Source of the DNA: Alphaproteobacteria bacterium
GTDB lineage: Bacteria; Pseudomonadota; Alphaproteobacteria; Rickettsiales; UBA998
Assembly (NCBI GenBank): GCA_004292675.1
Contig: RDXO01000019.1
Location: 1 to 64,000 of the forward strand
Length of the DNA stretch: 64,000 nt
Reading direction: 5' to 3'
In this document: in pieces, positions 1-57,350 of the stretch
Layout of the letters: every line of letters begins with the position of its first letter
Position numbering within the stretch: position 1 is the stretch's first letter
Notes under the pieces: model-generated
The model's input: only the letters and a program-made list of their open reading frames with translations
What the model was told of the DNA's origin: nothing
The model's database searches: none
Translations under genes and position numbers: made by a program

Positions 1-153
1 TGCTGTATCTGTGCCATAGCCCTTCTCCTTTAGCCAGTTGATTACATTCTGCCACATTATGGCATCTGATGCAACCCAACCTGACGGGGATGGACATCTG
101 GGAAATATCCAGAGTTTATTATCACTCACTATATGTAACTCATGTTTACTCAT
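1..153 (-). CDS. Partial small protein in an immunity-gene position (runs off the window)
   Basis: The ATG at 153 overlaps the stop of the upstream toxin tail as ATGA, exactly where the other A-type toxin tails in this array carry their immunity gene. Fifty-one residues are visible before the window edge, beginning MSKHELHIVSDNKLW, with a Cys-Pro-Ser-Pro-Ser stretch near residue 22. It does not resemble the A-type immunity proteins at 1275-1601 and 2787-3059, so if it is an immunity protein it belongs to another family. A short degraded stretch resembling it lies at 34541-34623. The immunity role is inferred from position only. Confidence 0.55.
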   Translation of the reverse strand, partial: MSKHELHIVSDNKLWIFPRCPSPSGWVASDAIMWQNVINWLKEKGYGTDTA

Positions 154-425
154 CGTCTAAAATCTCCTCGCAAATCTTTTCCACCAGGCTTTTTAGCCTT
201 CTCGATAATTTCTTCCCAACTATCACCTCTATTCCTAAAATAATCAATAGTTGGTCCCCATTTGTCACCTGTTTTCTGGATATTTCGTTCAAAAATAGCC
301 TCTGATTTATCAGGAGGTGTCATATCCTTATACTTCACTCCTAACGCTCTGCGTTGTTTGCTTAGTTCTCGCGCAATGGTTTCAACGTCATGACCTTGCT
401 TGCGCATACGACGTTCAACCTGCAC
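150..425 (-). CDS. Orphan A-type toxin tail, copy A1 (probably not independently expressed)
   Basis: This frame repeats the C-terminal part of the MuF-toxin protein at 3029-4177: a charged linker (KQGHDVETIARELSKQRRA) followed by the toxin-like module with KTGDKWGPTIDYFR and KKPGG. It ends differently from copies A2 and A3 (residues RGDFRR). The linker homology continues upstream to about 455, but one base is missing near 450 compared with copy A2. The reading frame can therefore start only at a GTG at 425 with no clear ribosome binding site. I read it as a silent orphan cassette that could be swapped onto the full-length MuF gene by recombination in the linker. The toxic activity is unknown. 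Confidence 0.6.
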   Translation of the reverse strand: MQVERRMRKQGHDVETIARELSKQRRALGVKYKDMTPPDKSEAIFERNIQKTGDKWGPTIDYFRNRGDSWEEIIEKAKKPGGKDLRGDFRR

Positions 426-471
426 AAGATTGCGGACTTCTCGTTCATAGCATCACATAAGAAGAGTAAAT

Positions 472-879
472 TTAAGTGGCACGGGGAAGCTCATCGATAA
501 TATCTACCGTACTTTCAGAACCATCGGACATCAACACCAATGCCAAGGCTTCTGCTGCTTTTTGGCGCACAAGGATCATGCGAGGGTCTGATATAATTTC
601 CTTTGGAGCGCGATAATCATCTATAGGAACAGTTAGATTATACAATTCTTTTAATGCTAAAGTAACTTTCTTGTCGAGGACTATTTCTCCTGCTTCAATC
701 GCATTTATAACTAATGAGTCTTCAAATAATTGAATAAATGCCTCTGTGAATGATGCGACCAATCCTTCTGGATTATCGGTATTTGTCCATATTTTTTCCT
801 GAAAATCCCGATCCGATAACTCTTTAAGACCTTCGATAATAAATTTCTTATATATAGAAGAAATAGAATATGTACTCAT
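472..879 (-). CDS. Putative immunity protein for B-type toxin, copy B1
   Basis: A 135-residue acidic protein whose start overlaps the stop of the B1 toxin tail (ATGA, 876-879), the usual arrangement of toxin and immunity genes. Its last 38 residues (DPRMILVRQKAAEALALVL... to PRAT) are almost identical to those of the immunity protein at 1922-2317, while the N-terminal two thirds are diverged. The pattern WxxxxNPEGLVASFTEAFIQLFED and the DPRM...VRxxAAxALALV end recall the SCO4402-like family from memory; this was not searched. It presumably binds and neutralises the B-type module in the cytoplasm. Confidence 0.65.
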   Translation of the reverse strand: MSTYSISSIYKKFIIEGLKELSDRDFQEKIWTNTDNPEGLVASFTEAFIQLFEDSLVINAIEAGEIVLDKKVTLALKELYNLTVPIDDYRAPKEIISDPRMILVRQKAAEALALVLMSDGSESTVDIIDELPRAT

Positions 880-1193
880 TTGAATAGATCCTTGTTAAAT
901 ATAAAATCTTTTACGGGAATATGCGACTCTGGTGCATTGCTCAATACTTTGTTACCATTTTTGTCAAAATATTGTCCATTCTTTTTCAGCTTTATATAAT
1001 GTTGTTGCTGTAAGGGGTTGGGACTTTTGGGATTACCCTTTTGAATACGGATATCTGTATGCCCCTTGCTTTTAGGATCAACATATTTCACACCATCGCC
1101 TTTTTTACTTAACTCACGTATCCATGTTGCTGGCACACCTTTAGGTCGACGGAATAATCGCTGTGTATGATAGCGTTCTAATTTCTCACGCAC
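876..1193 (-). CDS. Orphan B-type toxin tail, copy B1
   Basis: A 105-residue frame equivalent to the C-terminal half of the protein at 2314-2775. It carries the module KKGDGVKYVDPKSKGHTDIR, then GQYFDKNGN, then SHIPVKDFIFNKDLFK. This layout (GVxY-DP, RIQxGxPxSPN, GQxxDxxGN, SHIxxxDF) is a recurrent C-terminal module of polymorphic toxins of the RHS/CdiA/MuF type. Upstream, the open frame continues into a remnant of the MuF constant region (about 1194-1260, GVATARRGIAAITQRV) but is fused to the preceding immunity gene's stop. Translation would thus need the GTG at 1193. Probably a silent cassette; activity unknown. Confidence 0.6.
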   Translation of the reverse strand: MREKLERYHTQRLFRRPKGVPATWIRELSKKGDGVKYVDPKSKGHTDIRIQKGNPKSPNPLQQQHYIKLKKNGQYFDKNGNKVLSNAPESHIPVKDFIFNKDLFK

Positions 1194-1274
1194 CCGTTGC
1201 GTTATGGCTGCAATTCCTCTGCGTGCTGTTGCAACACCCAGCCAACTGATATATTTAATTTTGATGCACTGATT

Positions 1275-1601
1275 TTAGGAATGAGGAAAGAATATAGGAG
1301 GATTCAATAATCGCTTTTGTAGCTTTTTATCCGTGATTAATGTAGAAAAACGATGATGCAACTGCCTCAAGTCACTCTCCTGTGCAGTATTAGAAAGTAG
1401 AGATATACCGATATAATGTTCATAGTGCAGCGTGATAATATGCATACCCACTTTAAAATCTATGTATGCCTGATCGATGGGATAGGAAAGTTGTTCTAGA
1501 TCATCTTCATTCAGTAAACTATATCCAAGAGCTGAAATGGCATGTATAAAATGGTATGCAAATTTTTTATCTAACGTTTTAGTTAATTGTAATTCATGCA
1601 T
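1275..1601 (-). CDS. Putative immunity protein for A-type toxin, copy A2
   Basis: A 108-residue protein starting 8 bases inside the end of the A2 toxin tail. Its centre matches the protein at 2787-3059: YPIDQAYIDFKVGMHIITLH versus YHMDQLYIDFRIGDHIVTLH, followed by EHYxGIxLLSxTA in both. It is longer at the C-terminus by about 18 residues. A purine-rich AGGGAAATTTT precedes the ATG. Position and similarity to the gene behind the intact MuF toxin support an immunity role against the A-type module. The family is not recognised with certainty. Confidence 0.65.
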   Translation of the reverse strand: MHELQLTKTLDKKFAYHFIHAISALGYSLLNEDDLEQLSYPIDQAYIDFKVGMHIITLHYEHYIGISLLSNTAQESDLRQLHHRFSTLITDKKLQKRLLNPPIFFPHS

Positions 1602-1920
1602 AAAATTTCCCTTTTTTGTTAAATATGTTTCTTAAATCCTCTCCACCAGGCTTTTTAGCCTTCTCGATAATTTCTTCCCAACTATCACCTCTATTTCTAA
1701 AATAGTCAATAGTTGGTCCCCATTTGTCTCCTGTTTTCTGGATATTTCGTTCAAAAATAGCCTCTAATTTATCAGGAGGTGTCATACCTTATACTTCACC
1801 CCTAACGCTCTGCGTTGTTTGCTTAGTTCGCGTGCAATGGTTTCAACGTCATGACCTTGCTTGCGCATACGACGTTCAACCTGCACAAGATTGCGGACTT
1901 CTCGTTCATAGTCATCACAA
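1594..1920 (-). pseudogene. Frameshifted orphan A-type toxin tail, copy A2
   Basis: Translated in two frames this segment gives the whole A-type cassette: linker DYEREVRNLVQVERRMRKQG through ARELSKQRRALGVKY, then MTPPDKLEAIFERNIQKTGDKWGPTIDYFR and KKPGG. Compared with copies A1 and A3, one base is missing near 1787 (CATACC instead of CATATCC), which breaks the frame in the middle. The 3' portion is open from an internal ATG at 1785 and ends with residues NIFNKKGKFYA, unlike A1 and A3. No start is available for the linker part. It is read as a decayed or silent cassette retained next to its immunity gene. Confidence 0.65.
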
Positions 1921-1921
1921 T

Positions 1922-2317
1922 TTAAGTGGCACGGGGAAGCTCGTCAATGATCTCTACAGTACTTTCAGAACCATCGGACATCAACACCAATGCCAATGCT
2001 TCTGCTGCTTTTTGGCGCACAAGGATCATTTGAGGATCATTAATGATTTCGATTTCAGGACGAAATTCGTTAACTAAATCAAGGAGTCTATCTAAATCTC
2101 TGAGGGTTTGAGTAATCTCATGACTTATAATAACCTCATTATTTTCTAGAAGATAACTTATAATTGAATCATCAAACAACATATTTACAGTTTCCACAAA
2201 AGAACCTATTAAATTTTCTGGATTGTTTTGATTTAACCATACGTCTTGTTGATATTCGAGACTCGCTAAATTATGCAACAAGTTCATGATAGTGCTTTTG
2301 AATATTTTGTACTTCAT
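1922..2317 (-). CDS. Putative immunity protein for B-type toxin, copy B2
   Basis: A 131-residue acidic protein, start overlapping the B2 toxin tail stop (2314-2317, ATGA). The C-terminal 38 residues are nearly identical to the B1 immunity protein, differing only at R/Q and D/E. The N-terminal two thirds (MKYKIFKSTIMNLLHNLASL...) have diverged strongly but keep the W-x5-NPENLIGSFVE-x7-FDDSI pattern. Near-identity at the 3' end with divergence in the 5' half suggests recombination or selection for new toxin specificity. Same tentative SCO4402-like affiliation as B1. Confidence 0.65.
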   Translation of the reverse strand: MKYKIFKSTIMNLLHNLASLEYQQDVWLNQNNPENLIGSFVETVNMLFDDSIISYLLENNEVIISHEITQTLRDLDRLLDLVNEFRPEIEIINDPQMILVRQKAAEALALVLMSDGSESTVEIIDELPRAT

Positions 2318-2775
2318 TTGAATAAATCTCGATTAAACGTGAAATCTTTTATATAGATATGAGAGTCTAGTGACTCACCTGAAACAGGATTACCATTTTT
2401 ATCTAACCATTGTCCATTTTTTTTCCATTTCACATAATTTTTTTGTTGTCCTAGATTTGGACTATTGGGATCGCCCTTTTGAATACGGATATCTGTATGC
2501 CCCTTGCTTTTAGGATCAATATATTTCACACCATCGCCTTTTTTACTTGGCTGACGTATCCATGTTGCTGGCACACCCTTAGGTCGGCTGAATAATCGTT
2601 CTGTATGATAGCGGTCTAATTTCTCACGCACCCGTCGTGTTATGGCTGCAATACCCTTGCGTGCTGCTGCAACACTCAAGCCACCAATGCGCCCGATCAG
2701 TAAAAGCGACTCAATAGGATAGACGGGTTCTATCGGCGGATCAACTGCCATCAGTCGTTCGCGTTCTGTTTGCAA
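2314..2775 (-). CDS. Orphan B-type toxin cassette B2 with a MuF constant linker
   Basis: Residues 3-45 copy a stretch of the full-length MuF protein (ERERLMAVDPPIEPVYPIES through SVAAARKGI). At DNA level this is a near-exact duplicate of about 120 bp of 3425-3545. Residues 46-153 carry the B-type toxin module (KKGDGVKYIDPKSKGHTDIR, GQWLDKNGN, SHIYIKDFTFNRDLFK). The only start is a TTG with no ribosome binding site, just downstream of an immunity gene. The shared linker would allow recombination to replace the A-type tail of the MuF gene by this B-type tail, as described for orphan rhs/cdiA tips. Activity of the module is unknown. Confidence 0.65.
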   Translation of the reverse strand: MQTERERLMAVDPPIEPVYPIESLLLIGRIGGLSVAAARKGIAAITRRVREKLDRYHTERLFSRPKGVPATWIRQPSKKGDGVKYIDPKSKGHTDIRIQKGDPNSPNLGQQKNYVKWKKNGQWLDKNGNPVSGESLDSHIYIKDFTFNRDLFK

Positions 2776-2786
2776 GCACTTTGGGG

Positions 2787-3059
2787 TTACTTAATGAAAG
2801 GTTTTACCCCTTCCCAAATCAGTGAAAGTTGCTGTTCAGTCGCGGTATCGGATAATAGGTAAATGCCCGTATAATGCTCCCAGTGCAATGTCACGATATG
2901 ATCACCTATCCGAAAGTCAATATAAAGTTGGTCCATATGATACTTAACTTGATCTCTTCCTTCAAAATCAAGCATCTTTCCTCCATAATGTTCTATAGCA
3001 TCTATAAGCCTAAGACATTGTTTTTTTTCTACACTATTTGTAATATGTATCTCGTGCAT
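2787..3059 (-). CDS. Putative immunity protein for the MuF toxin, copy A3
   Basis: A 90-residue protein whose start lies 31 bases inside the 3' end of the full-length MuF-toxin gene, so the two are probably translated together. A GGGAGG sequence sits about 10 bases before the ATG. It shares the core (DQxYIDFxxGxHIxTLHxEHYxGIxLLS) with the protein at 1275-1601. It is the best candidate for the cognate immunity protein of the one toxin copy in the array that looks expressed. No enzymatic motif is visible, and the small soluble acidic form is typical of immunity proteins. Confidence 0.7.
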   Translation of the reverse strand: MHEIHITNSVEKKQCLRLIDAIEHYGGKMLDFEGRDQVKYHMDQLYIDFRIGDHIVTLHWEHYTGIYLLSDTATEQQLSLIWEGVKPFIK

Positions 3060-4177
3060 TTTCTAAATACCTCCCTTAAATCCTCTCCACCAGGCTTTTT
3101 AGCCTTCTCGATAATTTCTTCCCAACTATATCCTTCATTTCTAAAATACTCAACGGTAGGTCCCCATTTGTCACCTGTTTTCTGGATATTTCGTTCAAAA
3201 ATAGCTTCTAATTTATCTGGAGGAGTTAAATCCTTATATTTCACCCCTAACGCTCTGCGTTGTTTGCTTAGTTCGCGTGCAATAGTTTCAACGTCATGAC
3301 CTTGCTTGCGCATACGATGTTCAACCTGCACAAGATTGCGGACTTCTCGTTCATAGTCACGGCGCAACTTAGGTTGGCGCGCGCGCGCAAGACGATCAGT
3401 GATACGTGCCAAAATAGCAGAGATACCCTTGCGGGCTGCGGCAACACTCAAGCCACCAATGCGCCCGATCAGTAAAAGCGACTCAATGGGATAGACGGGT
3501 TCGATGGGCGGATCGACTGCCATAAGTCGTTCGCGTTCTGCTTGCGTCAGAGCCACGGGAGCTGCACGACAACGACACCCACCTTCGGCTCCGGGATGAG
3601 GTCCGCTTGCCCATAAAAATATCTGCCCGTTGCGTGATGCATGGCTACTCCGCACCCGATCATCCCCCTGAGTTGTCCACATAAAGCGTTCCATTCCCAC
3701 GCCAATCTGTCGCCGCGCATCAAGATGTTGGTTGAGGCGGGTATGGATGTTCTGCTCTTCCTGTATCGCCCGCTTGCCCATCTGCTGCGCAAGAGAAGTT
3801 TTTGGGTCGATCTCCTTCCACTGCATCGCAGCATCAAGCTGTTTCATTGCCTGTGATTCGGGATGATAAAAACTGATGCCTTTTCGATAGTGTTGATGCA
3901 CCATCAAATAACTTTCTGTACGCACGAACAAAGTTTCTAATCGGCGCACTAAAAGATAGGCGGCATTTGCCTGCACCTCTTCCAGATAAGGTTCATGGGG
4001 GAGCGTATCTCGTTCTATACCAACTCTGCGCAATGTCGCTAAGAATTGATGGGTATGCACTTTGGTAGCATCGGAAATGCTTAGCTGAGCGCGATGCATT
4101 GCACCCGCAATCAGGCTAAGTGCATGAAGGACATCATCCTGTGAGAAGACGTGCTTCTTTCTGGTTTGTTTTTTCAT
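3029..4177 (-). CDS. MuF/SPP1 gp7-type phage head protein with C-terminal polymorphic toxin
   Basis: 382 residues. Residues about 120-210 form the MuF (phage Mu gpF / SPP1 gp7) minor head domain, recognised by DDRVRSSHASRNGQIF and the terminal GGCRCRAAPV. A linker with PPIEPVYPIESLLLIGRIGG follows (about 215-260), then a charged coiled stretch, and from about 305 a toxin-like module containing KTGDKWGPTVEYFRNEGYSW and KKPGGEDL. Fusions of MuF domains to variable toxin tails are an established class of polymorphic toxins in temperate phages. The gene follows the capsid gene, as expected for a head-morphogenesis protein, and precedes its putative immunity gene. Linker segments are repeated in the downstream orphan cassettes. 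The toxin's target is not known. Confidence 0.8.
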   Translation of the reverse strand: MKKQTRKKHVFSQDDVLHALSLIAGAMHRAQLSISDATKVHTHQFLATLRRVGIERDTLPHEPYLEEVQANAAYLLVRRLETLFVRTESYLMVHQHYRKGISFYHPESQAMKQLDAAMQWKEIDPKTSLAQQMGKRAIQEEQNIHTRLNQHLDARRQIGVGMERFMWTTQGDDRVRSSHASRNGQIFLWASGPHPGAEGGCRCRAAPVALTQAERERLMAVDPPIEPVYPIESLLLIGRIGGLSVAAARKGISAILARITDRLARARQPKLRRDYEREVRNLVQVEHRMRKQGHDVETIARELSKQRRALGVKYKDLTPPDKLEAIFERNIQKTGDKWGPTVEYFRNEGYSWEEIIEKAKKPGGEDLREVFRKCTRYILQIV

Positions 4178-4203
4178 GAGATTTTACACATCATTTATTT
4201 ACT

Positions 4204-4243
4204 AAACAGTTGGTTAGCCTGAATACAAGCTAACCAACTGTTT
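4204..4243 (-). terminator. Perfect 15-bp inverted repeat between capsid and MuF genes
   Basis: The arms at 4204-4218 and 4229-4243 are perfect reverse complements (AAACAGTTGGTTAGC) around a 10-base loop. It lies about 20 bases after the capsid stop codon on the coding strand. The end of the 3' arm is TTT but no long T-run follows, so it could act as a weak terminator or mRNA-stabilising structure that sets capsid above MuF expression. Function inferred. Confidence 0.5.
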
Positions 4244-4262
4244 GCTTTAGCACTTCACAAAA

Positions 4263-5459
4263 TTAAGCAGCCAATCGCAATAATTTGATGGCGTCCGTAT
4301 TAATAACTTCGCCACCAACACGGCGTGTGGTATAGAACTTCACAAATGGCTTCTCTGTGAACGGATCACGCAAGATGCGTAGTCCTATGCGCTCGACAAT
4401 CAGATAGGCTTGCGTAAAGTCTGCAATCGCCACAGAAAGCGAGTTTGCAGCAGCTATTGGCATATCCGCCGCTTGCGCCACTGGCACTCCGAGTAACGTA
4501 TCAGGCGCACCTGCTGCTAATCCCGGTTGCCATAAATATTGCCCTGTGGTACTTTCTTTCAGTAAACGCACTGATTGAATGGTAGATCGGTTCATCAAGA
4601 AGGTAGCATTGCGCGTATATTCTTCTTGTAGGGCATAGAATAAACGAATCAAGCCATCTCCTGTCACGGTTGCACTCGTTCCCGAATTAATTTGCTGCAC
4701 TTGCCCAAATGCCGTTCCCGCTGTATAGGTCAATATCCCCTTTGGTTGCCCTGTTCCCGTTCCATTGATGAAAGCGGTGGACTCCATGCGTGCAAAGCGA
4801 TCCGCTACCTTATCGGCAACCCATGCCTCAACATCAATAGCAGCATCATCCAGCAATTTTTGTGTTGCTTTAGGTTGTGCATACATTTCATGAACAACGA
4901 TAGTCTTTTTACCAACATCAGGGGTCGTTGTGTCACTCACTGCCCCTGTTTCCGCAACCCATGCAGCTCCCATATCTCCTGCATCTTCAATCACATCTAA
5001 GGAATCAGTGGAAATAATTTGTACGCTTGCCAATGCACGCATAGGAGAGCTATCAAAAATGCGGCGCGCCACACGATCTGATAATTCCTCCGTGACAAAA
5101 TAACCGCCATCTTGGGGCGTTCCCACGCTTAGGGCTTTGGTGTGCAACGCCTCTAAGCCTGCATCCATGCCTTTGCGTAAGTACGTGCAGAATGCCTGCT
5201 TATACTCATTATTGCGGGTATGGTGCGGATATTCTGCTGCACTCATGGCAGGGCGTGCCATGGCTGTTTCAAGGCGATCCATGCGTGATTTTTGCTGATC
5301 CATATGCGCATTAATACGGCGCAAATGCTCATCATAGAGCGGATCGGCACTGCCTTTGCGCTCTAATTCATTGAGGCGATGATCATTCACCTGCTTAAAT
5401 TGTTCCCACGCATTGCCAAGTGCATAGACTGTTTCTGTTGCTTCTTGATAGTCTGTCAT
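4263..5459 (-). CDS. Phage major capsid protein, HK97 gp5 family
   Basis: About 398 residues from the ATG at 5459, preceded by AAAGG ten bases upstream; a TTG at 5477 would add six residues. The N-terminal 100 residues are charged and coiled (the delta/scaffold region, with LNELERKGSADPLYDEHLRR). The HK97-fold shell domain then begins with KALSVGTPQDGGYFVTEELS and continues through GTGTGQPKGIL, FLMNRSTIQSVRLLK and the C-terminal KFYTTRRVGGEVI. The family forms the icosahedral shell after the scaffold region is removed by the prohead protease encoded upstream. Order portal, protease, capsid is canonical for HK97-like phages and gene transfer agents. Confidence 0.93.
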   Translation of the reverse strand: MTDYQEATETVYALGNAWEQFKQVNDHRLNELERKGSADPLYDEHLRRINAHMDQQKSRMDRLETAMARPAMSAAEYPHHTRNNEYKQAFCTYLRKGMDAGLEALHTKALSVGTPQDGGYFVTEELSDRVARRIFDSSPMRALASVQIISTDSLDVIEDAGDMGAAWVAETGAVSDTTTPDVGKKTIVVHEMYAQPKATQKLLDDAAIDVEAWVADKVADRFARMESTAFINGTGTGQPKGILTYTAGTAFGQVQQINSGTSATVTGDGLIRLFYALQEEYTRNATFLMNRSTIQSVRLLKESTTGQYLWQPGLAAGAPDTLLGVPVAQAADMPIAAANSLSVAIADFTQAYLIVERIGLRILRDPFTEKPFVKFYTTRRVGGEVINTDAIKLLRLAA

Positions 5460-5501
5460 AATGATTAAACCTTTCAACGTTGAAGTAAGATTTTAATATT
5501 A

Positions 5502-10778: not shown

Positions 10779-11582
10779 ATGCAGCACACATCGCACCATT
10801 TTGTCACATGGAACGTCAATTCATTGCGGTCACGCATGGTGCATGTGCTTGATTTCATCAAAGAACATCGCCCCGATGTTGTGATGTTGCAAGAACTAAA
10901 ATGTCAAGACGAGCAATTTCCGTGGGAAGCCATGGAAGATGCAGGTTATCAATGCGCTGTGTATGGTCAAAAGAGCTATAATGGCGTTGCAATCATGAGT
11001 CGCACTGGTTTGGAAGATGTGCGCCGTGGGCTACATGCTGATGATGAACAAACGCGTTATATTGAAGCCATCACTGTGCTTGATGGCACGGCGTACCGTG
11101 TTGCCTCCGTCTATGTACCCAATGGCAATGAAGTTGGGTCTGATAAATTTCACTATAAATTAGATTTTTTTCATCATCTTCGTCATCGTCTCACGGAGAT
11201 AGCTCCCTATGAGGAATCCGTCATCATCGGTGGGGATTATAATTGCGCCTATCTTCCGCAGGATGTGTATGATGCTGATCGCCTCGAGGGGACATTATGC
11301 TTTCATCCTCAGGAGCGTGAAGCGATGTGGCGCATACTCCATGATGGCTATTATGATGCCGTGCGAATGCAGCATCCTCATGAGCCACTCTTTAGTTGGT
11401 GGGATTATCGCGCAGGTGCATTCGCCCGCAATCATGGTATGCGGATTGACCATCTTTTGCTATCACCTAAAGCAGCTAATAGCCTAAGCCAAGTGCGTAT
11501 TTTTTCTGAAGAACGAGCCAAGGACAAGCCTTCGGATCACGCCCCCGTGGGATGTATGCTTATCGCACGTGAAGATGCGTAG
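10779..11582 (+). CDS. xthA: Exodeoxyribonuclease III (AP endonuclease, xthA/exoA family)
   Basis: 267 residues with all family motifs: WNVNSLRSR (Asn for Mg2+), LQELKCQDEQFP (catalytic Glu), NGVAIMSR, SVYVPNGNEVGSDKF (Tyr), IIGGDYNCAY (Asp-Asn pair), RIDHLLLSP, and SDHAPVG (Asp-His). It cleaves the backbone 5' of abasic sites in base-excision repair and removes 3' blocking groups. Length is normal for the bacterial ExoA group. The final 27 bases including the stop (11556-11582) resemble one arm of the palindromic repeat found at 45.9 and 57.2 kb. Confidence 0.95.
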   Translation: MQHTSHHFVTWNVNSLRSRMVHVLDFIKEHRPDVVMLQELKCQDEQFPWEAMEDAGYQCAVYGQKSYNGVAIMSRTGLEDVRRGLHADDEQTRYIEAITVLDGTAYRVASVYVPNGNEVGSDKFHYKLDFFHHLRHRLTEIAPYEESVIIGGDYNCAYLPQDVYDADRLEGTLCFHPQEREAMWRILHDGYYDAVRMQHPHEPLFSWWDYRAGAFARNHGMRIDHLLLSPKAANSLSQVRIFSEERAKDKPSDHAPVGCMLIAREDA

Positions 11583-11601
11583 TATCAATGCGTATTCTTC
11601 A

Positions 11602-12837
11602 TTAAACAGAAATAGTCTTTGATTCCAAGTGCGGAGGCAGCACAATCGGTGTAGAAGACGGTTGAACGGGTGCATTAGCATCCACCGTTTGTGCAGGGGA
11701 AACAGCAGGTTGATTTTTCTGCGTCTCATTTTTCGCTTCTTGCTGCGCTGGTGTCGTAGTTGGCTGCGCTGTAGTTGGCTGCGCTGGTGTTGCGGTTGGC
11801 GTAGAGGCAGTGGTGGACACAGGAGCAACTTGTGGTCGTGCTTGCGCTATTTCATTCGCCGTGGTTTTTATGCGCGCCTTCGTCTCCCCAACGTCAATCT
11901 GTATATTGATTTTTTCTTTCACCTCTTTGCCAACTAATTCTGTTGCCACATTTCCTATTAGTTGCGAGAAGTTGGGATGGTATCCAAGTTTTGTAAGATC
12001 TGCAATAACCCTTCTAGAGCGTTCCACTAAAAAATCCTCCATATATTGTTCAGGGGAATGACTCATAACGCCAGTAAAAGCTGTAACACCCGCTTGAACA
12101 CTTGCCATAAATTTCTGCCCAATATCACCTTGATGCTGATTCCATGTGTGCATAAATTGTTCTCTTCCTTGATTGAACGCCATACCTACACGCTGCATGA
12201 CGTTAGAACCAAGCTGAAGCGCGGCATTGCCTTTATCTTGAATATCATGCGTATGATCATGGATGATTTTCGCAATGGCATATGCCCCCCCCTGCAAATC
12301 TTGGCTGTTCCCAAATGCGACATCGCCTTTTTCAAATATTGCAATATTTTTTGCTATTTCGCGTTGCTGTGCAGGAGGTAATTTAGGGAAGGTTTCTTCG
12401 TAAAATTTCTTTACTTCCGCTGATTTACCTTGCCATGCTCGAAGATTTTCTTCCGTTGTGAGAACATCAACAGCCAAACCTAATTCACCGCTAAACTTAG
12501 CAATCTGAGCTTGGAAATCTTGTTGATTCCCATCTATTTTTGGCTTACTTGCTTCTTCTTGTTGAATTTTAGTGATAGCATCTTTCGTTTTTTGCCCTGC
12601 TGGTGAAAGCGGTTCATCTGTATTCGTCAGCGTTTGCAATCGATTACCAAGATACCCTAAGCCTTTTTGAATGTTCTGAACAAGATCTTGCTTGCCATCA
12701 GCCTGCTTTTGGCTAAATTGCGCAACCTCATTACCAGAACCACTAAAGTGCTTTAGTGCTTGTTCTGCCCTACCCACGAGGTTTGAAAAAAATCTCCCTA
12801 CAGGGTTTCCGCTATCTTGTTGTGCTTTGTCGTTCAT
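11602..12837 (-). CDS. Unknown protein with Pro/Thr/Ala-rich C-terminal tail
   Basis: About 411 residues from the ATG at 12837; a TTG two codons earlier is possible. No signal peptide or membrane helix is visible. Residues 1-320 are mostly helical and charged, with KLPPAQQREIAKNIAIFEKG and IHDHTHDIQDKGNAALQLGS. From about 330 to the end the protein is low complexity (repeats of TTAQPTTTPAQ, then SPAQTVDANAPVQPSSTP). No family is recognised. The flexible tail and lack of export signal would fit a secreted effector or a surface-attached protein, but this is speculation. It stands alone between convergent xthA and ffh. Confidence 0.6.
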   Translation of the reverse strand: MNDKAQQDSGNPVGRFFSNLVGRAEQALKHFSGSGNEVAQFSQKQADGKQDLVQNIQKGLGYLGNRLQTLTNTDEPLSPAGQKTKDAITKIQQEEASKPKIDGNQQDFQAQIAKFSGELGLAVDVLTTEENLRAWQGKSAEVKKFYEETFPKLPPAQQREIAKNIAIFEKGDVAFGNSQDLQGGAYAIAKIIHDHTHDIQDKGNAALQLGSNVMQRVGMAFNQGREQFMHTWNQHQGDIGQKFMASVQAGVTAFTGVMSHSPEQYMEDFLVERSRRVIADLTKLGYHPNFSQLIGNVATELVGKEVKEKINIQIDVGETKARIKTTANEIAQARPQVAPVSTTASTPTATPAQPTTAQPTTTPAQQEAKNETQKNQPAVSPAQTVDANAPVQPSSTPIVLPPHLESKTISV

Positions 12838-45509: not shown

Positions 45510-45971
45510 ATGACAGATGAACACCTTTTAGACTTACGTAACAAAATCTTAGAGCAGCAACAGATGGTCACGACGTTGCTAAAATTATTATTGGGTGCAA
45601 CGCCTAATATAGATGTTACCCTACCCTCATGTCATGAGCATAGACGGGTAAATAATAGCATACCATCAACCTATGGCGAAATTCTCCATGCCTTTGAACA
45701 ACGCAAACACCATGATGCTTCCGTGCGTGAATTACGCCAGATGATCACAACAAGTGAAAAAGAACCGCCTTCAGCCTTATTTATAAAACTTTCGCAAATG
45801 ATGCTTAAATGGTCGGAATGTGAACTAGCGGTACTCAAAGAGCTACGCCGTGACGCATCGAACGCTTCGGAGGATGCATCCCAAAAGCCTCTAAGCCTAG
45901 AAGAATGGGATATTATGCGTCATTATTTGGATATACCCACTTCACTTCAAGAAGTTGAGCCGTTGAAGTGA
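45510..45971 (+). CDS. Hypothetical protein; 3' end formed by a palindromic repeat
   Basis: 153 residues, mostly helical, starting MTDEHLLDLRNKILEQQQM, with a conserved-looking KLSQMMLKWSECELAVLKEL. No family recognised. The last 13 codons (from about 45932, residues IPTSLQEVEPLK) lie inside the repeat copy at 45932-46048, so the repeat has probably replaced or extended the original C-terminus. Confidence 0.55.
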   Translation: MTDEHLLDLRNKILEQQQMVTTLLKLLLGATPNIDVTLPSCHEHRRVNNSIPSTYGEILHAFEQRKHHDASVRELRQMITTSEKEPPSALFIKLSQMMLKWSECELAVLKELRRDASNASEDASQKPLSLEEWDIMRHYLDIPTSLQEVEPLK

Positions 45972-46048
45972 AGGTAAGGGTATATCTTATTAAAAATACT
46001 CATCTTTTCCACATTGCGATGCTGCGCATCTTCATGTGCGATGAGTAT
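45932..46048. repeat. Bipartite palindromic repeat, copy 1
   Basis: About 117 bp with two hairpins. Hairpin 1: ATATACCC, inner TTCACTTCAA, ..., TTGAAGTGAA, GGGTATAT. Hairpin 2: ATACTCATC, CACAT, GATGC...GCATC, ATGTG, GATGAGTAT. TCTTATTAAAA joins them. An inverted copy lies at 57232-57350; in the joined part 70 of about 76 bases agree. It occupies the gap before ettA together with 100 further bases lacking genes. Confidence 0.75.
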
Positions 46049-46148
46049 GCAACTCAGAGCGCATCAAATGACATATGCAAATAATCGATTGACCAATGGA
46101 ATAGAATCAGTCTAATATGCAGCAATTCATCTCAATGTGTTGTAACCT

Positions 46149-54871: not shown

Positions 54872-55110
54872 AACCGAGGAGAGAACCGCGTGACCGTTGA
54901 CGAGTAAGCCACTTTCGGCACTCATGTTAAGGTGGGCGCATTATACTATAAACCACGGTTCATAGCAGGGAACACACCCGAGAGAAAGGTATTAGCCCAA
55001 GGGTCATAATGTCTAACGCGTCACGCAGTAGATTTTATTCTAATGCAAAAAATCCAATAACGCAACAATTTTACTTGCATCTTTTTGTGCCTCACGCCTA
55101 TTATGCGTGC

Positions 55111-57145: not shown

Positions 57146-57231
57146 TACCCGCACTATAGTTGCGTAATGATTGAAATAATCGCTGGATTTATTGCAAAGA
57201 TAGTATTATAATTAATTCTATACTAAATAGT

Positions 57232-57350
57232 ATACTCATCGCACATGAAGATGCGTAGCATCAAAATGTGGAAACGATGAGTATTTTTAATAAGATATAC
57301 CCTTAATTTCACTTGCAAGGACTTGAGTCCTTAAAGTGAAATGGGTATAT
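57232..57350. repeat. Bipartite palindromic repeat, copy 2 (inverted)
   Basis: About 119 bp, the reverse complement of the element at 45932-46048. Both hairpins are kept: ATACTCATC...GATGAGTAT with inner CACAT/ATGTG and GATGC/GCATC, and GGGTATAT...ATATACCC enclosing TTTCACTT...AAGTGAAA. Hairpin-1 loop sequences differ between copies while the stems pair. It fills most of the 304-base gap 57146-57449, in which I see no gene. Confidence 0.75.

What the first reader, a model, noticed from the sequence alone, without database searches (positions are those of the whole stretch)
45932..46048. Two-hairpin repeat in opposite orientations at 45.9 and 57.2 kb, one copy inside a coding end
Both copies (45932-46048 and 57232-57350) keep the same two stem-loops although loop and some stem bases differ, so the RNA or DNA structure seems to be selected. 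Copy 1 provides the last codons of the protein at 45510-45971. Inverted copies 11 kb apart could also promote inversion of the intervening segment containing ettA, infC and lon.
Basis: seen in the sequence. Interest (0 to 1): 0.6.

Follow-up and report, generated by a model that had tools for sequence, protein, structure and literature searches.

The report
Genus-specific mobile two-hairpin DNA repeat
The two sequences are copies of a ~119-letter jumping DNA repeat, found about 30 times in each of two sister bacterial species and nowhere else searched, that lands at TA sites, sometimes in the last codons of a gene; it is a new family of a known kind of element, not a gene-inversion switch.

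Summary
Window 45932-46049 (- strand) and 57231-57349 (+) are two of at least 31 full-length copies of a ~119-bp interspersed element in this 1.6-Mb alphaproteobacterial genome. A sister species (RDZH01 MAG, G006) has 26. No true copy was found in 261 further genomes of the order, in plasmids or in phages, and a strict exact-motif scan of 84,980 genomes hit only the sister species. Each copy has precise ends (TATACTCATCG...TGGGTATA) and two palindromic arms joined by a T/A-rich linker. Nine sites are shared between the species, 22 are G000-only and 17 are G006-only. About fourteen empty sites could be read and show insertion after a dinucleotide, mostly TA. Both window sites are empty in G006, with identical gene order between them, so there is no inversion. 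Copy 1 replaced the native C-terminus of the 45510-45971 protein, and other genes show the same effect. Double-sided stem changes exceed shuffles, but G-U and A-C mismatches occur at equal numbers of positions, so no RNA-strand selection is visible. Best reading: a non-autonomous MITE-like palindromic transposable element, closest in anatomy to Caulobacter CIR repeats, whose transposase is unknown.

The parts
45932..46049 (-). Copy 1 of the two-arm element (target dinucleotide CA on the element strand = TG at 46048-46049)
   Evidence: empty site in sister species
45932..45984 (-). Arm B (hairpin TATACCC..TTCACTT / AAGTGAA..GGGTATA) of copy 1; contains the stop codon of ORF 45510-45971
45996..46048 (-). 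Arm A (hairpin ATACTCATC / GATGAGTAT with inner stems) of copy 1
45510..45971 (+). 153-aa protein without a Pfam or NCBIfam match; its last 13 codons and stop come from copy 1
57231..57349 (+). Copy 2 of the element, intergenic between an RDD-family gene and an 807-aa unknown gene (57231-57232 = target TA)
   Evidence: empty site in sister species; neighbour identity
57232..57284 (+). Arm A hairpin of copy 2
57285..57295 (+). Linker TTTTAATAAGA between the arms
57296..57349 (+). Arm B hairpin of copy 2; its loop region carries a GANTC site at 57325-57329
11556..11627 (+). Truncated, decayed left-end fragment of the same family

Best explanation
A genus-restricted, non-autonomous, palindromic mobile element (MITE-like; no transposase gene of its own) of ~117 bp with ends TACTCATCG...GGGTATA. 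It is inserted as a unit, in either orientation, after a target dinucleotide (usually TA, with C before and T after preferred). SHOWN: multi-copy, precise ends, presence/absence at orthologous sites between two sister species, two conserved palindromic arms, recurrent donation of a new C-terminus and stop to genes. INFERRED: a transposase acting in trans on the terminal motif TACYCAT/ATGRGTA and the hairpin ends moves it. Because at three sites the left dinucleotide equals the empty-site dinucleotide (TG, CA, GA) while the right end stays TA, insertion probably makes no target duplication: the left dinucleotide is target, the right TA is element. The arms are most simply the element's own recognition or ssDNA structure. 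Effects on host genes are by-products of insertion.
For: Copies: 33 strong full or near-full matches in G000; sister species G006; none in 8 other genomes of the family; 57 full copies with exact ends; 56 of 57 end in TA. Mobility: 9 shared sites with flanks mostly 87-97% identical; empty sites; about nine clean single-TA sites; TG, CA and GA sites. The GA case (C37:78840) was predicted in note, written in the same turn as search 31 and before its result was seen. Target preference: (T at +1 in 47/57, C at -1 in 28/57). Restriction to the genus. Structure. Insertion into genes; a copy splits an IS transposase gene at G000:C24. Solo arm-A copies, e.g. a 36-bp perfect hairpin in G000 with a near-identical counterpart in G006.
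Against: No transposase could be tied to it: no Y1_Tnp in either genome at E<=1, no DDE_3 in either, and the only DDE_Tnp_1 hits lie in G000 and show no matching ends. Both genomes are only 86-87% complete. Without an outgroup, precise excision in one species cannot be told from insertion in the other. Two sites (C44:11018, C16:14476) need one extra substitution under the no-duplication reading, and some 'empty' sites are too diverged to read. At several shared sites the two species' copies are less alike than their flanks, so conversion or replacement also happens.
Confidence: 0.88

Rival explanations
1. TA-duplicating MITE of a Tc1/mariner-IS630 (or IS5/IS427-like) transposon: terminal inverted repeat TACYCAT, 2-bp TA target duplication, parent transposon lost.
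For: Ends form ATGRGTA/TACYCAT inverted repeats; target mostly TA; about nine empty sites have a single TA where the filled site has one on each side.
Against: At C12:65088, C36:45932 and G006:C37:78840 only the left dinucleotide matches the non-TA target (TG, CA, GA) and the right stays TA. No DDE_3 in either genome. Asymmetric target preference.
Confidence: 0.3
2. REP/REPIN or IS200/IS605-derived element moved by a HUH (Y1) transposase: hairpins at both ends, insertion 3' of a short motif, no target duplication.
For: Two hairpins, apparent absence of a true duplication, left-flank target motif, right end carrying its own TA.
Against: No Y1_Tnp/RAYT in either genome at E<=1. Stems start at the very ends without the usual spacer. 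Base preference also downstream of the insertion point.
Confidence: 0.2
3. Structured RNA or transcription-terminator element kept by host selection, for example at 3' ends.
For: Excess of both-sided changes; lower divergence in stems; T-run after arm A.
Against: Sites are divergent 14, tandem 24, convergent 8, with no 3'-end preference and no significant orientation bias (16 v 8). Terminator scan finds none at the two window copies. G-U and A-C mismatches at equal numbers of positions. Most sites are not shared between the sister species (9 shared, 39 not).
Confidence: 0.07
4. Inverted copies act as an inversion switch for the ettA-infC-lon segment.
For: Two inverted copies 11 kb apart.
Against: The sister species lacks both copies and has the same order and orientation. 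Dozens of other copies exist; the pair is not special.
Confidence: 0.02

Closest known systems
CIR (Caulobacter CcrM-associated intergenic repeats), described in PMC2229807
   Same: ~110 bp, Alphaproteobacteria, two stem-loop arms joined by a linker, TA at the termini, GANTC in the terminal loop of one arm (44/55 copies carry a GANTC, almost all in that loop), mechanism of mobility unknown.
   Different: CIR are reported as strictly intergenic; here copies enter gene ends and a transposase gene. No full CcrM: the only N6/N4 methylase found in G000 is a 283-aa CcrM-like protein without the C-terminal part.
ERIC / RUP / Correia (TA-terminated bacterial MITEs)
   Same: 100-200 bp, TA at ends, palindromic, mostly intergenic, sometimes in genes.
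   Different: Those form one long stem from 5' to 3' end and duplicate the target (PMC2229807, Table 1); here there are two separate arms and apparently no true duplication.
Rickettsia palindromic elements (RPE)
   Same: Alphaproteobacterial palindromic repeats of 105-146 bp that also enter coding sequence; mover unknown.
   Different: RPEs fuse in frame inside proteins; here arms carry stops and only truncate or re-end genes.
Coxiella QMITE1/QMITE2 (PMC5896051)
   Same: Overlap gene 3' ends by 1-50 bp and give new C-termini.
   Different: Unrelated organism; sequences not compared.

Membership tests
Bacterial MITE (broad sense) | Short, multi-copy, no transposase gene, precise shared ends | tested here: met
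   57 full copies, ~119 bp, fixed ends
Bacterial MITE (broad sense) | Presence/absence at orthologous sites (mobility) | tested here: met
   22 + 17 species-specific sites, about 14 readable empty sites
Bacterial MITE (broad sense) | Terminal inverted repeats | tested here: met
   TACYCAT/ATGRGTA at the two ends, 9 of 12 positions alike
Bacterial MITE (broad sense) | Target site duplication | tested here: inconclusive
   TA sites are uninformative; three non-TA sites show left = target, right = TA
IS630/Tc1-mariner MITE | DDE_3 transposase in the genome | tested here: not met
   none in G000 or G006, genomes 86-87% complete
REP/REPIN (RAYT) or IS200/IS605 | Y1_Tnp transposase in the genome | tested here: not met
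   none in G000 or G006 at E<=1
CIR | Two arms plus linker, TA termini | tested here: met
CIR | GANTC in a terminal loop | tested here: met
   a GANTC in 44/55 copies; about 0.44 expected by chance per 119 bp, so weak; absent in window copy 1
CIR | Sequence homology to CIR1-4 and full CcrM in host | tested here: inconclusive
   motif scan of GTDB finds only the genus; only a truncated CcrM-like methylase; CIR sequences not available
CIR | Strictly intergenic | tested here: not met
   copies inside gene ends and an IS transposase gene
Any Rfam RNA family | Match at gathering score | tested here: not met
   only tRNA and 6S in the window

The most novel reading that the evidence does not exclude
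A two-hairpin element that inserts after a dinucleotide without duplicating its target, in genomes with no detectable HUH (Y1) or Tc1/IS630-type transposase: a class of small palindromic mobile DNA moved by an unrecognised recombinase, possibly shared with Caulobacter CIR repeats.
Probability: 0.15. Interest if true: 0.65.

Novelty: new member of a known kind. Interest (0 to 1): 0.35.

Why it matters
It gives a clean natural experiment (two sister species, 9 shared and 39 species-specific sites, readable empty sites) on how two-arm palindromic repeats of Alphaproteobacteria move, which is an open question for CIR and RPE repeats. It also shows how such insertions rewrite protein C-termini.

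Tried and rejected
(1) Inversion switch: rejected, both sites empty and collinear in the sister species. (2) Hairpin-loop targeting: flank complementarity looked suggestive, but 48 targets against 1470 intergenic TAT controls show no enrichment of enclosing stems (p = 0.51). (3) Terminator or 3'-end function: no placement bias, no terminator hits at the window copies. (4) RNA-strand selection: G-U and A-C mismatches at 20 and 21 positions. (5) RAYT/IS200 and IS630 source: no Y1_Tnp or DDE_3. (6) IS5-type source: the DDE_Tnp_1 genes found carry no matching ends and one is itself split by a copy. (7) Full-length partner carrying the same end: the left-end pattern list gives only known copies, truncated ends, solo arms and a chance match in a gene. 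(8) CcrM link: GANTC in the loop is weak statistically and no full CcrM was found. (9) Virus, plasmid or phage carriers: none convincing.

Full report
Observation. They are there, with exact limits 45932-46049 (- strand) and 57231-57349 (+ strand), and fold far better than shuffles. A whole-genome search gives 33 strong full or near-full matches in G000 plus fragments, and the nearest relative held, G006, has a similar number. G006 is the record RDZH01, 'Alphaproteobacteria bacterium PH2015_06S_46_36': contig lengths 86236, 52266, 191525, 130556 and 82679 agree. Counting only copies with both ends, 31 lie in G000 and 26 in G006. No match was found in 8 other genomes of the family. Of 263 genomes of the order searched (the two host species among them), only one other gave a match, a 31-nt hit at the threshold. 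A strict exact-motif scan of GTDB contigs found only RDZH01, and records of or near the window's own genome may be left out there. Viral contigs, plasmids and phages gave nothing convincing.

Anatomy. Nearly all copies start TATACTCATCG and end TGGGTATA. Arm A is ATACTCATCG...CGATGAGTAT with two inner stems. A linker of about TTTTAATAAGA follows. Arm B is TATACCC...TTTCACTT...AAGTGAAA.GGGTATA. The outer ends are imperfect inverted repeats (TACTCATCGCAC against TACCCATTTCAC), and each arm is bounded by the same motif, so the element looks like two palindromic units side by side. Solo units exist: a 36-bp perfect hairpin TATACTCATCGCACAT-TTCC-ATGTGCGATGAGTATA in G000 (C13:32557) with a near-identical counterpart in G006 (C5:23624), arm A alone at G006:C35:40538, and a 50-bp A/B hybrid at G006:C31:56194.

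Mobility. Flanks of 9 G000 copies match flanks of G006 copies; 22 G000 and 17 G006 sites are species-specific. The flanks of the species-specific sites were searched in the other genome, and about fourteen empty sites could be read. About nine show one TA where the filled site has TA...TA. Three have a non-TA dinucleotide: TG at C12:65088, CA at C36:45932 (window copy 1) and GA at G006:C37:78840. In these the filled site keeps that dinucleotide on its left side and TA on its right. The GA case was predicted in a note written in the same turn as the search, before its result was seen; in that target the next two bases also differ between the species. Two sites (C44:11018, C16:14476) deviate by one substitution, and others (for example C6:8495, C23:14689) are too diverged to read. 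The right dinucleotide is TA in 56 of 57 copies, the left in 51 of 57. The simplest reading is that the left dinucleotide is target and the right TA belongs to the element, with no true duplication. A TA-duplicating transposase followed by later change or excision is not excluded. Base preference is C at -1 (28/57) and T at +1 (47/57).

Copy exchange. At shared sites some copy pairs are 98-100% alike, but at others (C34, C3:23327, C8) the copies differ more than the flanks and resemble other copies more. At C8:13005/G006:C12:31184 the two species carry the element in opposite orientation, one nucleotide apart, within the palindrome TTAGCATAGTATGCTAA. A general preference for palindromic targets was tested and not found.

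Coding ends. Copy 1 gives the 45510-45971 protein the end ...HYLDIPTSLQEVEPLK where the sister species has ...HYLDATERTPNDTCK. The same kind of replacement is seen against an empty site at C44:11018, G006:C16:40966 and G006:C31:70910, and the element also ends ORFs at C6:15205 and C45:29481, where both species carry it. One copy splits an IS transposase gene (G000:C24). Most copies are intergenic without placement or significant orientation bias.

Structure and selection. On 55 aligned copies 91.9% of pair cells are standard, and 9 pairs have both-sided changes (shuffles 3.2 +/- 1.2; slid controls 3-5). Stem columns diverge half as much as unpaired ones. Changes that would be tolerated only in an RNA of the + strand (G-U) and only of the - strand (A-C) occur at 20 and 21 positions. 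Part of the double changes are sub-family differences (11 copies at one pair), so they arose in source copies. This fits DNA-level recognition or hairpin-templated correction as well as selection, and gives no support for a host RNA function.

Inversion. Both window sites are empty in G006 (C22:38866-38970 and C22:27688-27785), on one contig and in collinear order. No inversion of the ettA-infC-lon segment is visible between the species.

Who moves it? No Y1_Tnp and no DDE_3 in either genome, and no DDE_Tnp_1 gene with matching ends. The genomes are 86-87% complete, so the mover may be missing, lost or of another family; other transposase and recombinase families were not searched.

Known relatives. 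By anatomy the closest described kind is the CIR repeat of Caulobacter and Brucella: ~110 bp, two arms plus linker, GANTC in a terminal loop, TA at the termini (PMC2229807). Here 44/55 copies carry a GANTC, almost all in the arm-B loop, but a chance expectation of 0.44 per element makes this weak. CIRs are reported intergenic only, and the only N6/N4 methylase found in G000 is CcrM-like but lacks the C-terminal region. ERIC, RUP and Correia share TA ends but form one long stem. RPEs (PMC2229807) and QMITEs (PMC5896051) share the coding-end effect. I therefore file it as a new family of MITE-like palindromic elements and claim neither CIR nor IS membership.

Noticed in passing
window 151-5477: Prophage-like region: capsid-like ORF 4263-5477 (-) followed by a phage-head-morphogenesis-like ORF 3029-4177 (-) whose conserved stretch (RERLMAVDPPIEPVYPIESLLL...) is repeated nearby with different 3' parts (spacing about 1450 bp, repeats D1-D4); looks like displaced C-terminal cassettes. 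Names are by eye only.
   Followed up: no
G000:C8:13005-13120 and G006:C12:31184-31299: Same site, opposite orientation of the element in two species, insertion points 1 nt apart, within TTAGCATAGTATGCTAA.
   Followed up: partly
G000:C33:17640-17980 and G000:C35:44450-44860: Another repeat with CTCCCCCGCCTGCGGGGGAG palindromes inserted into or beside copies of this element (nested repeats).
   Followed up: no
many places, e.g. G000:C38:4114 and G000:C13:32480-32670: A second dispersed palindrome, GTCATTCCTGCGTAGGCAGGAATGAC type, with more than 20 hits in G000; a third repeat near query 1589-1633 has about 20 copies in G006.
   Followed up: no
L165:1417-2268 (G000:C30, - strand): Solitary CcrM-like adenine methylase of 283 aa without the C-terminal part, encoded between what look like nuoD and nuoE.
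   Followed up: partly
window 54879-55034 (-): 6S RNA (49.3 bits) between a prepilin-like gene and the ORF starting at 55009.
   Followed up: no
shared sites: Copies at orthologous sites are sometimes much less alike than their flanks and closer to other copies: gene conversion or repeated replacement.
   Followed up: partly
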